Origin: Flavobacteriales bacterium | GTDB lineage: Bacteria > Bacteroidota > Bacteroidia > Flavobacteriales_E > Vicingaceae | Length of the DNA: 11,044 nt | Assembly (NCBI GenBank): GCA_029262915.1 | Contig: JAJCYN010000003.1 | Location: forward strand, 1-11,044 | Direction of reading: 5' to 3' | In this document: positions 1,473 through 5,091 of the stretch, one piece after another | Numbering within the stretch: position 1 is the first letter of the stretch | How the letters are laid out: each line of letters opens with the position of its first letter | Made by a program: the position numbers and the translations under genes | Notes under the pieces: model-generated | The model's database searches: none | What the model saw: the letters and a program-made list of their open reading frames with translations, nothing else | What the model was told of the DNA's origin: nothing

Positions 1473-1982
1473 TTACCAATTACTTACTGCCTTATTAAAA
1501 ATATCTTGAGTTAATTGATCATTAATATCCTTTATTAATTCATCTTCAACACTCGCTAAATTTTGTGAGCTTTCATAATCTGAATATCGTGTAAAACTCG
1601 TTTCAAAATCTGATTCTTTATCCTTTGTATTGGTAAATTTAACCTTAACCGTTATTGATAACCTATTTAAAGCTGCTGTCTCATTTCCTTGAATAGCTAC
1701 AGATGTTACAGCATAGCCTGTTATTGATCCGTCAAACTGTAAGTCCCCATTTTTGGCAATCAAGTCTAAATTAGTTTGAGATATAAATTTGTCCTTTAAA
1801 TCTTCCGTAAAAGTTTGAGTTAAATTCGCACTTGCTAAAGGAGCATAACTTTGAAAAGTTTTTACAGAAACTGTTTTAACATCTTCTGGAATTGAAGCTC
1901 CAGTAAATGAATAGTTTACTTTACAAGAAAATATAGCTCCTGTTAAAACAATTAGAATAATATTTAAAATTCTTTTCCTCAA
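1473..1982 (-). CDS. lptE: LPS-assembly lipoprotein LptE, TTG start
   Basis: LptE is the outer-membrane lipoprotein that plugs the LptD barrel and helps insert lipopolysaccharide in the outer leaflet. The 169-residue product has a basic N-terminus (MRKR), a hydrophobic stretch and Cys20 in the context AIFSC, a loose lipobox as often seen in this phylum. Right after it comes the Bacteroidota LptE hallmark CKVNYSFTGASIPEDVKTVS, followed by the alternating LptE/Rlp-B-like beta/alpha pattern with a QTFTEDLKDKF helix. The start must be TTG at 1980-1982: the codon before it in frame is the stop TAG, and no ATG, GTG or TTG occurs again before the lipobox. Its TTG overlaps the TGA of the sigma-54 activator (TTGA), so expression is probably coupled. 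Confidence 0.88.
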   Translation of the reverse strand: MRKRILNIILIVLTGAIFSCKVNYSFTGASIPEDVKTVSVKTFQSYAPLASANLTQTFTEDLKDKFISQTNLDLIAKNGDLQFDGSITGYAVTSVAIQGNETAALNRLSITVKVKFTNTKDKESDFETSFTRYSDYESSQNLASVEDELIKDINDQLTQDIFNKAVSNW

Positions 1983-3214
1983 CTATTAATATCGTATTCT
2001 TTAATCTTTCGATAAAGTGTTCGTTCAGAAATACCTAATTCTTCTGCAGCTTTTTTCCTTTTTCCACTATATTTTTGTAGTGCTTTAATTATCATTTCTT
2101 TCTCTTTATCTGCTAAAGATAATGACTCCTCAACAACTTCAACTTTTTGTGTCACTTGTTCTTCTTTAGGCAGGATTTGAGGTTTATATACTTGTGGTTC
2201 TTCCATAGGTTGTTGCTCTTTATTCTCATATAATCGTTGAACACTTTGCATAATCGCTGGATTATTTGCAGCATCAGAAACATCACCCCCATTTTTTTGC
2301 ATTAAACCAACTACTATATTTTTTAATTCCGTTACATCACCTTTTAAATCGAACAGCACTTTGTATAAAATATCTCTTTCGGATAAATCTGCACTTTCTT
2401 CACCCTTGTAAACAGTTGGTAAGTTTTGATTATTGTCTTCTGGTAAATATTTCAATAAAATTTCAGCACTCACATCTCTGGTACTTTCAATTACTGAAAC
2501 CTGTTCAGCTACATTTTTTAATTGTCTGATATTTCCTTTCCACCTATAGTTTTCTAATAAACCAATAGCTTCTGGAGCTAATTTAACTGCTGGCATTCTA
2601 TATTTGTTAGCAAAATCTGCTGCAAATTTTCTAAACAACAAATGAATGTCTTCTTTTCGTTCTCGTAAAGCTGGCAAATGAATTGGCACTGTATTTAAAC
2701 GATAAAACAAATCTTCTCTAAATTTTCCTTTTCGAATTGCTTCAGGTATGTTTACATTAGTTGCAGTAACAATTCTGACATCTGTTTTCATCACTTTTGA
2801 TGAACCAACTTTTATAAATTCTCCTGTTTCTAAAACCCTTAACAACCTTACTTGAGTTTGAACTGGAAGTTCGGCAACTTCATCCAAAAAGATGGTTCCT
2901 CCATCTGCGACTTCAAAATACCCCTTACGTGAATCGTGTGCTCCAGTAAATGCTCCTTTTTCGTGCCCAAACAACTCTGAATCAATTGTTCCTTCAGGAA
3001 TAGCACCACAGTTTACTGCAATATATTTATTATGTTTTCTCGCACTTAGCTGATGTATAATTTGAGGCATCACTTCTTTACCAACACCACTTTCTCCTGT
3101 AATTAATACTGATAAATCTGTTAAAGCTACCTGTGAGGCAATATCAATTGCCCTATCCAATACAGGTGATGTTCCTATAATTCCAAATCGTTGTTTTATT
3201 TGCTGTGTATCCAT
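1979..3214 (-). CDS. Sigma-54-dependent transcriptional activator without receiver domain
   Basis: This 411-residue protein is an AAA+ enhancer-binding protein that remodels RNA polymerase bound to sigma-54 using ATP. Visible motifs are Walker A GESGVGKE (40-47), the sigma-54 contact loop GAFTGA (87-92), Walker B TIFLDE (107-112) and the arginine-finger region FREDLFYRL (165-173), all intact. A linker of about 100 polar residues (roughly 255-360) leads to a C-terminal Fis-type helix-turn-helix (KRKKAAEELGISERTLYRKI). There is no N-terminal receiver, GAF or PAS domain: the AAA+ module starts almost at residue 1, so activity must be set by expression, a partner or the linker. The gene begins 10 bases after the frame-restored IVP stop and overlaps lptE. 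Its target promoters are not evident in this window. Confidence 0.93.
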   Translation of the reverse strand: MDTQQIKQRFGIIGTSPVLDRAIDIASQVALTDLSVLITGESGVGKEVMPQIIHQLSARKHNKYIAVNCGAIPEGTIDSELFGHEKGAFTGAHDSRKGYFEVADGGTIFLDEVAELPVQTQVRLLRVLETGEFIKVGSSKVMKTDVRIVTATNVNIPEAIRKGKFREDLFYRLNTVPIHLPALRERKEDIHLLFRKFAADFANKYRMPAVKLAPEAIGLLENYRWKGNIRQLKNVAEQVSVIESTRDVSAEILLKYLPEDNNQNLPTVYKGEESADLSERDILYKVLFDLKGDVTELKNIVVGLMQKNGGDVSDAANNPAIMQSVQRLYENKEQQPMEEPQVYKPQILPKEEQVTQKVEVVEESLSLADKEKEMIIKALQKYSGKRKKAAEELGISERTLYRKIKEYDINS

Positions 3215-3220
3215 ATTAAT

Positions 3221-3246
3221 AGAGTTAAGAATCGAGATTAAAGACT
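3221..3246 (+). repeat. Left arm of inverted repeat bounding the IVP gene
   Basis: The 26-base arm begins AGAGTTAAGAATCGAGAT and ends AAAGACT. It matches the reverse complement of 3627-3653 at about 22 positions with one single-base gap. It covers the restored IVP stop codon and ends 7 bases before the start codon of the sigma-54 activator. In the minus-strand transcript it forms the 3' side of a possible long stem that loops out the IVP gene. Confidence 0.7.
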
Positions 3247-3594
3247 TTAGTTCGAAAAGAAAAAATCATTTTCTGAATTTCCTCTAATTCTTTCAAAATA
3301 AGCTCTAATTGTTCTTGGCTTCCGTAATTTCTCTGTTGACAAATTATATAGTTGTGTTTCTAATTCATAAGAAGAGCTTATCGAAATAGATAAATATTCT
3401 CCAAATTGTAACTTAGTTCTTTTTCCAGATCCTTCTGCAATATTAGATGGAATAGAACAAGAGCATCGATTTATCTGATCAATTAAATTATATCGTTCTT
3501 TTTTAGGTAAATCCTTACAATATTCAAAAGTAAGATTAGTCAAATTCATTGACCGTTCCCAAATTTTTAACTTTTTAAAATTGTGATGATTCAT
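3225..3594 (-). pseudogene. Four-helix-bundle protein (23S rRNA intervening-sequence protein, IVP family), frameshifted
   Basis: The first 82 residues match the IVP/S23 family (the fold also used by the Avd accessory protein of diversity-generating retroelements): FKKLKIWERSMNLT at the start, then SIPSNIAEGSGKRTK and SSYELETQL. After Leu82 (codon 3349-3351) the open frame turns into an unrelated arginine-rich tail and stops at 3247. Skipping one base in the TATATA run near 3345-3350 restores a convincing family ending (IICQQRNYGSQEQLELIL, then KELEEIQKMIFSF) and gives 122 residues with a stop at 3225-3227. So the gene carries a +1 insertion, a sequencing error, or a shifty site. The biochemical role of stand-alone IVPs is unknown. 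It lies between miaB and the sigma-54 activator, with inverted repeats at both ends. Confidence 0.85.
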
Positions 3595-3595
3595 C

Positions 3596-3641
3596 AGTCT
3601 TGTATCTTGTTGTCTTTATCTTTTTTAGTCTTGCTATCTTG
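3596..3641 (+). repeat. Direct repeat pair upstream of the IVP gene
   Basis: AGTCTTGTATCTTG (3596-3609) and AGTCTTGCTATCTTG (3627-3641) differ by a single inserted C and start 31 bases apart. Read on the minus strand, the tract from 3655 to 3595 contains five CAAGA units (CAAGA-at-CAAGA-tag-CAAGA ... CAAGA-ta-CAAGA). It fills the whole 39-base gap between the miaB stop and the IVP start and enters the end of miaB. Confidence 0.7.
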
Positions 3642-3653
3642 ATTCTTGACTCT
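3627..3653 (-). repeat. Right arm of inverted repeat bounding the IVP gene
   Basis: On the minus strand this arm reads AGAGTCAAGAATCAAGAT followed by AGCAAGACT. It is the partner of 3221-3246; the two arms enclose 433 bases including themselves. It overlaps the last five sense codons and the TAG of miaB, so the miaB reading frame ends inside the repeat. Confidence 0.7.
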
Positions 3654-5091
3654 CTTTTGCTTTCCCTAAAAGAGTCCCTCCTGTACAGTTATCCACTTTA
3701 ACCTGAACGTAGTCTCCAACTTTATAATTTTCTTTTGGAAAAACGACCACTGTATTCTGAGATGTTCTTCCCGCCAATTCTTGATCAGATTTTTTAGACA
3801 CTTTTTCCACTAATACTTCATATGTTCTACCAACATAAGCCTTGTTTGCTTCATAAGAATGATCTCTTTGTAAAGCAACAATTTCCGCTAACCTTCTACT
3901 CTTATCGGCCTCACTCACGTCATCCTTATACTTCTTTTCTGCCTGAGTATTTGGTCGTTCGGAATACTTAAACATATAGGAGAAATCATACTTTACGTAT
4001 TCCATTAATGATAATGTATCTTGATGTTCTTCTTCTGTTTCTGAACAAAATCCAGCAATAATATCAGCAGAAATTGCACAATCAGGCATTACTTCTTTAA
4101 TCTTATCAATTCTTCCCATATACCACTCTCGTGTATATCCTCGATTCATCTTTTCTAACATACGTGTATTCCCACTCTGAAATGGTAAATGAATATACTT
4201 GCAGATATTATCATATTTCGCCATAGTATCTAAGAACTCATCTGTAATGTCTTTTGGGTGCGAAGTTGAAAAACGAACCCTCAACTTTGGACTAATCTGT
4301 GCTACTTGCTCCATTAATTGGGCAAAATTCATACTTTGTTTTTTCTCTTCCTCAGACAACGTTTCATAATCTTTTTTCAACCCCTCTTTTCCATACCATA
4401 AGTAAGAATCTACATTTTGCCCCAAGAGGGTTACCTCTCTATATCCTTGTCCAAATAACTCTCGTGCCTCATTTAAAATCGTTTCGGGATTTCTACTTCT
4501 TTCTCTTCCTCTTGTAAAAGGAACCACACAGAACGTACACATATTATCACACCCTCTTGTAATTGAAATAAAGGCAGAAACCCCATTACTCAATAATCTT
4601 ACAGGACTAATGTCTGCATACGTTTCTTCTTTCGAAAGAATTACATTGACAGCTTTTTTACCTTCATCTACTTGTTTCACCAAGTTAGGTAAATCGCGAT
4701 AAGCATCTGGTCCAACTACAATATCAACTAATCTTTCCTCTTCTAAAAATTTCGATTTCAATCGTTCTGCCATACACCCCAATACCCCAATTACCATTTC
4801 AGGTTTTGCTTTTTTTGCTTTCTGAAAAGAACGTAACCGTTGTCTTACCGTTTGTTCAGCTTTCTCACGAATAGAACAAGTATTCACAAATACAACATCA
4901 GCTTCTTCAAGATTGTTAGTAGTATTAAATCCTTCTTTAGATAAAATCGAAGCAACAATCTCACTATCCGAAAAATTCATTGCACAGCCATAACTTTCAA
5001 TATAAACTTTCCTGTTTCCTACTTCTTTTAAATCAAGTGTAGTTGCACTTCCTTGAATCGCCTCATCTATAACTTTATTTCCTGTTTCCAT
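3634..5091 (-). CDS. miaB: tRNA-2-methylthio-N6-dimethylallyladenosine synthase MiaB
   Basis: MiaB adds the methylthio group at C2 of i6A37 in tRNAs that read codons starting with U, using two 4Fe-4S clusters and SAM. The 485-residue product has the MTTase domain with cluster ligands Cys36 (ESYGCAMN), Cys72 ([11 protein letters not shown]) and Cys106 ([10 protein letters not shown]), the radical-SAM motif [10 protein letters not shown] (Cys181, 185, 188) with the following [12 protein letters not shown], and a C-terminal TRAM domain (about 417-478). All catalytic residues are present. I chose the ATG at 5089-5091: a longer frame opens at TTG 5115, but that codon lies inside the predicted promoter box. 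The last residues (ESQESR) are encoded by the inverted-repeat arm 3627-3653 and look like a tail added to the native end. First gene of the unit ending at secG. Confidence 0.96.

What the first reader, a model, noticed from the sequence alone, without database searches (positions are those of the whole stretch)
3221..3653. IVP gene packaged between long inverted repeats inside a protein-coding operon
Seen: bases 3221-3246 and 3627-3653 are imperfect inverted copies (about 22 of 26 matching) enclosing exactly one gene, the four-helix-bundle IVP homologue. Known: in Leptospira, Coxiella and others, IVP genes lie in 23S rRNA intervening sequences whose complementary ends form a stem that RNase III cuts out. 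Inferred: this 433-bp block could be a stand-alone intervening-sequence-like element that moved into a messenger RNA, looping out as one stem between miaB and the sigma-54 activator, where it could be processed and uncouple expression. That would suggest a mobile or RNA-linked lifestyle for stand-alone IVP genes common in Bacteroidota.
Basis: partly seen in the sequence, partly recalled or inferred. Interest (0 to 1): 0.72.

Follow-up and report, generated by a model that had tools for sequence, protein, structure and literature searches.

The report
Gene cassette with seven-base repeat arms
A small gene of unknown job sits between two mirror-image arms at a gene junction; many relatives in bacteria and archaea share the layout, with arms built from seven-base repeats, which points to a widespread and apparently undescribed kind of genetic insert.

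Summary
The arms are real: 3218-3246 and 3627-3656 (shuffle p 0.006). They overlap the end of miaB and the ancestral IVP 3' end, and the window's IVP gene is frameshifted. It is one worn copy of a general layout. Stand-alone IVP (PF05635) genes carry locus-specific inverted arms: own arms beat the 95th percentile of swapped arms in 35 of 57 same-genus loci, 21 of 30 one-per-genome loci, 17 of 39 named Bacteroidota and 33 of 41 other named loci. The arms repeat every 7 nt, with AG per unit on the sense strand; ordinary spacers and two other armed gene families do not. At the miaB/sigma-54 junction, 33 of 46 relatives have gaps of 20 nt or less, 3 have IVP, 3 a gene-less heptad hairpin. Wobble counts give no sign that pairing is kept by selection on RNA; the compensation test is inconclusive. 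Best reading, mechanism inferred: a homing-like selfish cassette whose IVP recognises its own heptad arms. Nine literature searches showed no link between IVP and heptad repeats.

The parts
3247..3594 (-). IVP gene (PF05635 / TIGR02436, four-helix-bundle, Avd-like), open frame of 115 aa; last third frameshifted relative to the intact copy in G001; by that comparison the ancestral frame would have stopped at about 3225-3227
   Evidence: Pfam match covers positions 1-92 of 106
3627..3656 (-). 5' arm (in the sense of the IVP gene), degenerate heptads; overlaps the last codons of miaB
   Evidence: heptad period not significant in this copy by itself (p 0.16)
3218..3246 (-). 3' arm, inverted copy of the 5' arm; overlaps the ancestral IVP 3' end and ends 3 nt before the sigma-54 activator ORF
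   Evidence: heptad p 0.12
3634..5091 (-). miaB, upstream gene of the junction; its last codons lie in the 5' arm (start codon chosen by eye; the longest ORF runs to 5115)
   Evidence: (TIGR01574, 453.6 bits)
1979..3214 (-). sigma-54 activator, downstream gene of the junction

Best explanation
The block is a worn copy of a widespread element that I call an IVP heptad cassette: a stand-alone IVP gene between two inverted arms, each a short array of 7-nt units of the form AGNNNNN on the gene's sense strand, the N5 part being particular to the locus. SHOWN by computation: locus-specific complementarity of the arms, the 7-nt period, the shared AG, placement close after the upstream stop and close before the downstream start, sense orientation between co-directional genes in Bacteroidota, sporadic presence at fixed junctions with short-gap empty sites, and gene-less heptad hairpins at one such site. 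INFERRED: the cassette is a selfish, homing-like DNA element. Its IVP product (a solved relative is a pentamer) binds the AG heptads of its own arms; five units of 7 nt are 35 nt, close to the median arm length of 38. Arms turn over as repeat arrays, so a new unit can spread to both arms, and pairing is kept by copying between arms rather than by base-by-base selection on an RNA. Sites run through a cycle: occupied (G001, G054), decaying (window), gene lost with arms left (G003, G008, G011), empty.
For: Own against swapped arms: 35 of 57, 21 of 30, 17 of 39 and 33 of 41 above the swap 95th percentile. Gene control: 294 ORFs in 375 kb of G012 contigs that hold IVPs; the four IVP genes rank 2, 3, 7 and 9. 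Lag-7 identity in flanks not chosen by complementarity: 1.25, 1.35 and 1.36 times expectation, against 0.98 in 289 ordinary spacers, 1.01 at GIY-YIG, 0.99 at PDDEXK_3 and 0.87 at four arm-less IVPs. Heptad profile A 0.69, G 0.80; information 2.14 against at most 1.67 in 30 permutations; 135 arms of 79 loci. Arms start a median -2 nt from the upstream stop and end 3 nt before the next start (47 loci). Junction surveys: miaB and sdhA/sdhB. Same-site IVPs form a clade in 10 of 15 site groups. dN 0.055 and dS 0.75 between window and G001. No wobble excess.
Against: No movement was observed and target-site duplications were not established. Same-site clades, with IVP identity of 69.5% between G001 and G054 against 57% for miaB between window and G054, also fit old vertical inheritance with many losses. 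Sense orientation (71 of 75; 35 of 37 named Bacteroidota) fits an RNA role at least as well; elsewhere it is 22 of 36. Purifying selection on the protein also fits a host function. Dispersed copies of the same heptad were found in one of two genomes looked at. In ortholog pairs dropped as poorly alignable, 17 of 31 doubly changed stem pairs are Watson-Crick, which leans towards compensation. The window's own arms are not significantly heptad-periodic. One Geobacter IVP has a 6-nt unit. That IVP binds heptads rests on no data here.
Confidence: 0.48

Rival explanations
1. RNA intervening element: the arms pair in the operon mRNA, RNase III cuts the stem, and the IVP segment is released as in 23S rRNA IVS. 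The stem also keeps upstream stop and downstream start close, so the insert costs the operon little.
For: Same gene family and layout as rRNA IVS (PMC4990558, introduction); arms abut stop and start; sense orientation 71 of 75 and 35 of 37 in Bacteroidota; window RNA folds at z -2.3; in poorly alignable ortholog pairs 17 of 31 doubly changed stem pairs are Watson-Crick.
Against: Arm mismatches G.T against A.C: 67 vs 72 (a 30-genome subset of it leans 25 vs 17, p 0.14), 24 vs 22 and 65 vs 78. In alignable ortholog pairs doubly changed stem pairs are Watson-Crick 10, G.T 2, other 14, and single changes G.T 21, A.C 19. Orientation only 22 of 36 outside named Bacteroidota.
Confidence: 0.25
2. Host regulator: the IVP pentamer binds AG heptads in its own operon mRNA, rather as TRAP binds spaced triplets (recalled), and tunes expression of the neighbouring genes.
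For: Purifying selection on IVP; sense placement between co-directional genes; AG every 7 nt; published heptads just before start codons were proposed to be sites of a post-transcriptional regulator (PMC4679880, abstract passages).
Against: Sporadic presence at the same junctions: 33 of 46 and 18 of 29 relatives have short gaps; many different flanking genes; gene-less scars.
Confidence: 0.15
3. By-product: spacers that tolerate insertions collect simple repeats and IVP merely rides along; the 7-nt period reflects polymerase slippage.
For: Heptad repeats are the most abundant long class in many bacterial genomes, and a slippage reason has been proposed (PMC4679880 and PMC4692102, passages).
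Against: 289 ordinary spacers and GIY-YIG / PDDEXK_3 flanks show no 7-nt period; arms are inverted and locus-matched; the same AG phase recurs across phyla.
Confidence: 0.08

Closest known systems
23S rRNA intervening sequences (IVS) encoding S23/IVP, e.g. in Leptospira and Coxiella
   Same: Same protein family; one gene inside complementary ends; sporadic presence at conserved sites; ORF decay reported (PMC4990558, abstract and introduction)
   Different: Here the block lies between protein-coding genes, not in rRNA; arms of the family are 7-nt AG repeats; no wobble excess; RNase III step not shown
Insertions in rRNA genes of CPR bacteria that encode IVP or GIY-YIG (PMC11270868, passages)
   Same: The same two cargo families, IVP and GIY-YIG, at several insertion sites
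   Different: rRNA location; the passages seen say nothing of heptad arms
Heptanucleotide repeats of Xanthomonas and Nostoc (PMC4692102), Beggiatoaceae, Cyanobacteria and Bacteroidetes (PMC4679880), Geobacter metallireducens (PMC2700814); passages only
   Same: Tandem 7-nt units; about 70 inverted pairs in each of two Xanthomonas; several units fit the AG/GG phase found here (TAACTGA is the complement of TCAGTTA)
   Different: Word searches of the three texts found no S23 and no 23S; 'helix bundle' was searched in two of them and also absent
REPIN / RAYT systems
   Same: A gene flanked by hairpin repeats, with gene-less copies elsewhere (abstracts in the listing)
   Different: RAYT is a tyrosine transposase (recalled); IVP is a four-helix bundle; its arms differ from locus to locus
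Avd accessory protein of diversity-generating retroelements
   Same: IVP of G001 matches the PHROG 'Avd protein of DGR', E 6e-5
   Different: No template/variable repeats were sought and no reverse transcriptase is among the four window proteins scanned

Membership tests
23S rRNA IVS | Encodes an IVP (PF05635) protein | tested here: met
   89.2 bits against cut-off 33.8 (frame broken in its last third)
23S rRNA IVS | Complementary ends that can form one stem | tested here: met
23S rRNA IVS | Inserted in a 16S or 23S rRNA gene | tested here: not met
   Neighbours are miaB and a sigma-54 activator; no rRNA match in 3000-3900; none in 40 named non-Bacteroidota loci scanned of 41
23S rRNA IVS | Cut out by RNase III without ligation | not testable with these tools
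   needs RNA data
23S rRNA IVS | Stem maintained by pairing in RNA | tested here: inconclusive
   No wobble excess; compensation 10 of 26 in alignable and 17 of 31 in dropped ortholog pairs; long imperfect stems may tolerate single mismatches
REPIN / RAYT | Y1 tyrosine transposase | tested here: not met
   The gene matches PF05635 only
REPIN / RAYT | Dispersed gene-less copies of the flanking repeat | tested here: inconclusive
   Microcoleaceae genome: 35 arrays, 2 within about 120 nt of an IVP match, 33 not; Geobacter sp. AOG1: a single array, at its IVP
Insertion sequence / MITE | Terminal repeats conserved between copies | tested here: not met
   Own arms beat swapped arms; arms differ between loci
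Diversity-generating retroelement | Reverse transcriptase with template and variable repeats | not tested
   Only four window proteins were scanned with Pfam

The most novel reading that the evidence does not exclude
IVP proteins and AG-heptad repeats form one self-standing nucleoprotein system across bacteria and archaea: a pentameric protein reads a seven-base register, each cassette has its own five-base key, and cassettes spread into gene junctions and rRNA. The orphan heptanucleotide repeats noticed in cyanobacteria, Xanthomonas, Geobacter and Beggiatoaceae would be its gene-less offspring.
Probability: 0.35. Interest if true: 0.88.

Novelty: new variant of a known kind. Interest (0 to 1): 0.76.

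Why it matters
Stand-alone IVP genes are common (59 of 60 genomes searched have a match, own genome included), and the one review-like source read calls the protein's function unknown. A shared, testable architecture offers them a function, ties them to the rRNA intervening sequences, and offers a cause for heptanucleotide repeats, whose excess in bacteria has been noted with little explanation beyond polymerase slippage (passages). It makes direct experiments possible: binding of an IVP to AG heptads, and gain or loss of cassettes at known junctions.

Tried and rejected
RNA-stem reading: tested by wobble counts with a tRNA control (119 pairs of 7 tRNAs, D stems left out: G.T 6, A.C 0) and by ortholog compensation. 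Wobble speaks against it. Compensation is inconclusive: few and non-independent pairs, and repeat arrays align poorly. On the recount the pairs that my filter had dropped (spacers 50% identical or less) lean towards Watson-Crick, 17 of 31; I therefore moved the RNA rival from 0.22 to 0.25 and the best explanation from 0.50 to 0.48.

Conserved terminal repeats of a transposon: rejected, arms are locus-specific. Known defence gene: no PADLOC match at E 0.1 for two proteins. Known Rfam element: one match far below its gathering score. Phage carriage: 36 viral-contig loci hold relatives; not followed.

Heptad density as a correlate of IVP number: a strict array scan gave 2, 2 and 0 arrays in samples of 375, 315 and 397 kb of G012, G010 and G055, too few to use. 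Gene-less spacers over 50 nt at sdhA/sdhB: two of four have a significant hairpin (G029, G035), two do not (G011, G017); only G029 has significant heptads. At miaB, G010 has a hairpin (p 0.02) without significant heptads, G007 and G044 neither; G043's 50-nt spacer was not tested. Five of 15 same-site groups are not clades; one of these five merges two junctions.

One search stopped with an error after printing its results.

Full report
THE OBSERVATION. The window (G000:C3; its nearest named relatives are Bacteroidota) holds miaB, an IVP gene and a sigma-54 activator on the minus strand. Inverted arms at 3218-3246 and 3627-3656 bracket the IVP frame. They score 37.5 against 23.6 +/- 3.8 in 2000 dinucleotide shuffles, p 0.006, and head the list of 31 inverted pairs in 2900-4000. 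One of eight other window ORFs scores higher, 46.0, through a long gapped AT-rich alignment that runs into coding DNA, so the single-locus evidence is modest. The RNA of the block folds at z -2.3. The arms overlap the last miaB codons and the 3' end of the ancestral IVP frame. The IVP gene is frameshifted relative to an intact copy at the same junction in G001. A real mutation and an assembly error cannot be told apart here.

ARMS ARE GENERAL. Of 83 IVP matches in 14 same-genus genomes I fetched 60; the 23 left out are mostly weak matches and further members of one conserved long subfamily. Of the 60, L137 (a fragment) was set aside and L110 and L117 had short flanks, so 57 were scored. Own arms have a median score of 40.0 against 24.5 for arms swapped between loci, and 35 of 57 exceed the 95th percentile of swaps (37.0). 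The four scored members of the long subfamily lie at 19.0-29.5, an internal negative set. The best-scoring IVP of each of 30 genomes gives 21 of 30; some of these loci are also in the first set. Eighty named genome loci, the best of 583 confirmed through one conserved motif, give 17 of 39 labelled Bacteroidota by record title and 33 of 41 with other or no clear label, among them Clostridia, CPR bacteria, a Methanophagales archaeon, Geobacter, Bosea, Planctomycetes and a cyanobacterium. As a gene control, 294 ORFs in 375 kb of G012, on contigs chosen because they hold IVPs, were scored alike: median 24.0, 95th percentile 34.2; the four IVP genes rank 2, 3, 7 and 9. Rank 1, with 89.0, is a GIY-YIG gene.

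ARMS ARE SEVEN-BASE REPEATS. In flanks not chosen by complementarity, identity at lag 7 is 1.25 times expectation in 80 genus and class loci, 1.35 in the 39 named Bacteroidota loci and 1.36 in the 41 others, with a second peak at lag 14 (1.15, 1.22, 1.35). It is 0.98 in 289 ordinary spacers of three genomes, 1.01 and 0.99 at 30 GIY-YIG and 30 PDDEXK_3 loci, and 0.87 at the four arm-less IVPs. Of 160 loci given to, 109 had arms scoring at least 38, and 79 of these gave 135 arms with a heptad window (62% identity or more at lag 7). Aligned in circular phase, the units read A 0.69, G 0.80, then less defined positions (T 0.45, G 0.34, A 0.43, T 0.42, T 0.43); information 2.14 against a mean of 1.61 and at most 1.67 in 30 permutations. 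The 5' arm in the sense of the gene is the G-bearing one (G 0.23, C 0.08), the median arm length is 38 nt in 51 loci, and arms begin a median -2 nt from the upstream stop and end 3 nt before the next start in 47 loci. The window's own arms show heptads only weakly (p 0.16 and 0.12), those of G001 and G054 clearly (p 0.04 and 0.009; 0.0015 and 0.0025).

PLACEMENT. Both neighbours are co-directional with the IVP gene in 71 of 75 loci with both neighbours read (the four long-subfamily loci and L137 left out), against 154 of 278 control genes (p 6e-12), 13 of 29 GIY-YIG and 17 of 29 PDDEXK_3 loci. Among named loci it is 35 of 37 in Bacteroidota and 22 of 36 elsewhere (loci with short flanks or one neighbour dropped).

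PRESENCE AND ABSENCE. At the miaB/sigma-54 junction I read 49 of the 59 genomes with a match; miaB was found upstream in 46. Gap of 20 nt or less: 33. IVP gene: 3 (window, G001, G054). Gene-less spacer of 71-75 nt with significant heptads and hairpin: 3 (G003, G008, G011). G010: 54 nt, hairpin only. G007, G043, G044: other short spacers. G036: a PDDEXK_3 gene between inverted CAGAT-type stretches seen by eye, not scored. G035 and G048: longer inserts not worked out. At sdhA/sdhB I read 30 of 58 matches; sdhA was found in 29: 6 hold IVP, 18 have 30 nt or less before the aligned start of sdhB, 4 have gene-less spacers of 54-73 nt, and 1 (45 nt) is probably a longer sdhB start. Coordinates place IVP beside sdhB in G041 and G044 too (not opened). 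Same-site IVPs form a clade in 10 of 15 site groups, among them miaB (3 of 3, two bacterial families) and sdhA/sdhB (5 of 5); at fadI/fadJ (two junctions merged), sufB/sufC and three more they do not, so some junctions seem to have been taken by different IVP lineages. The tree rests on about 105 columns. In 60-genome searches 59 have an IVP match.

RNA OR DNA. If pairing in RNA were selected, G.U should outnumber A.C among mismatches. It does not: 67 against 72 in 57 of 76 loci (the 30-genome subset gives 25 against 17), 24 against 22 in 17 loci and 65 against 78 in 33 loci; seven tRNAs gave 6 against 0. In ortholog pairs with both spacers over 50% identical, stem pairs changed on both sides are Watson-Crick 10, G.T 2, other 14, and one-sided changes G.T 21, A.C 19. 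In the pairs that this filter dropped the doubly changed counts are Watson-Crick 17, G.T 1, other 13 (my sum from the rows). The pairs are not independent and the dropped ones align poorly, so compensation is inconclusive. The wobble result suggests that complementarity is kept by something other than base-by-base selection on an RNA. Arms that are arrays of one unit can stay complementary while the unit changes, if copying between arms occurs; that is inference. The spacers of some orthologs differ far more than their genes (sdhA/sdhB: 5' spacer identity 0.39-0.68, gene 0.65-0.73), those of others do not. The protein is under purifying selection between window and G001 (dN 0.055, dS 0.75 over 228 nt before the frameshift).

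GENE-LESS COPIES. In the Microcoleaceae genome of L271 the unit AGGGAAC in three perfect tandem copies occurs in 35 separate arrays (78 overlapping hits, none for the reversed pattern); two lie within about 120 nt of IVP matches, 33 do not. In Geobacter sp. AOG1 the unit of L298 occurs only at its IVP. Four of its five IVP matches were opened: the other three have inverted arms of their own, one with a 6-nt unit. Of eight IVP places opened in the Microcoleaceae genome, two, both cut short, score only 34.0 and 31.5 (no swap control there).

LITERATURE. Nine searches of the open library and the passages read showed no paper linking IVP genes to heptad repeats or to arms between protein genes; the library lacks most subscription journals. 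PMC4990558 (abstract and introduction) describes IVS as elements of rRNA genes, cut by RNase III in the cases named, with a pentameric S23 structure from Xanthomonas campestris. My alignment matches a solved X. campestris protein, 2gsc, at E 2.3e-33. PMC4692102, PMC4679880 and PMC2700814 (passages) describe heptad repeats, with no hit for S23 or 23S in their texts. PMC11270868 (passages) reports IVP and GIY-YIG genes in rRNA insertions of CPR bacteria.

VERDICT. The RNA-processing part is not supported by the wobble test and remains open. The larger finding is the AG-heptad cassette shared across phyla.

Noticed in passing
L161-L190 (GIY-YIG) and L191-L220 (PDDEXK_3): Both gene families also have inverted arms: 19 of 30 and 16 of 29 over the swap 95th percentile, each with its own sequence style and no 7-nt period.
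   Followed up: partly
G023:C9:906073-910392 and G026:C2:183601-186426: Tandem arrays of GIY-YIG genes: ten equally scoring matches at a 457-nt step, and eight at about 375 nt.
   Followed up: no
G036:C31, miaB/sigma-54 junction (L044): The same junction holds a PDDEXK_3 gene between inverted CAGAT-type stretches (by eye), so a site can carry another cargo family.
   Followed up: partly
L191-L220: Arm mismatches at PDDEXK_3 loci (19 of 30 loci) are A.C 50 against G.T 21 on the gene's sense strand, as if pairing mattered on the opposite strand, or through a mutation bias.
   Followed up: no
L131, L133, L134, L135: A conserved longer IVP subfamily at one fixed locus, without arms; perhaps a domesticated IVP.
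   Followed up: partly
G044:C51:8487-8807: IVP match beside sdhB lies in an open frame of 492 aa, perhaps fused to the sdhA frame.
   Followed up: no
L077, miaB junction of G044: 102-nt spacer with a 9-nt tandem period (20 of 21 matches at lag 9).
   Followed up: no
L301-L336: 36 viral-contig loci encode IVP relatives.
   Followed up: no
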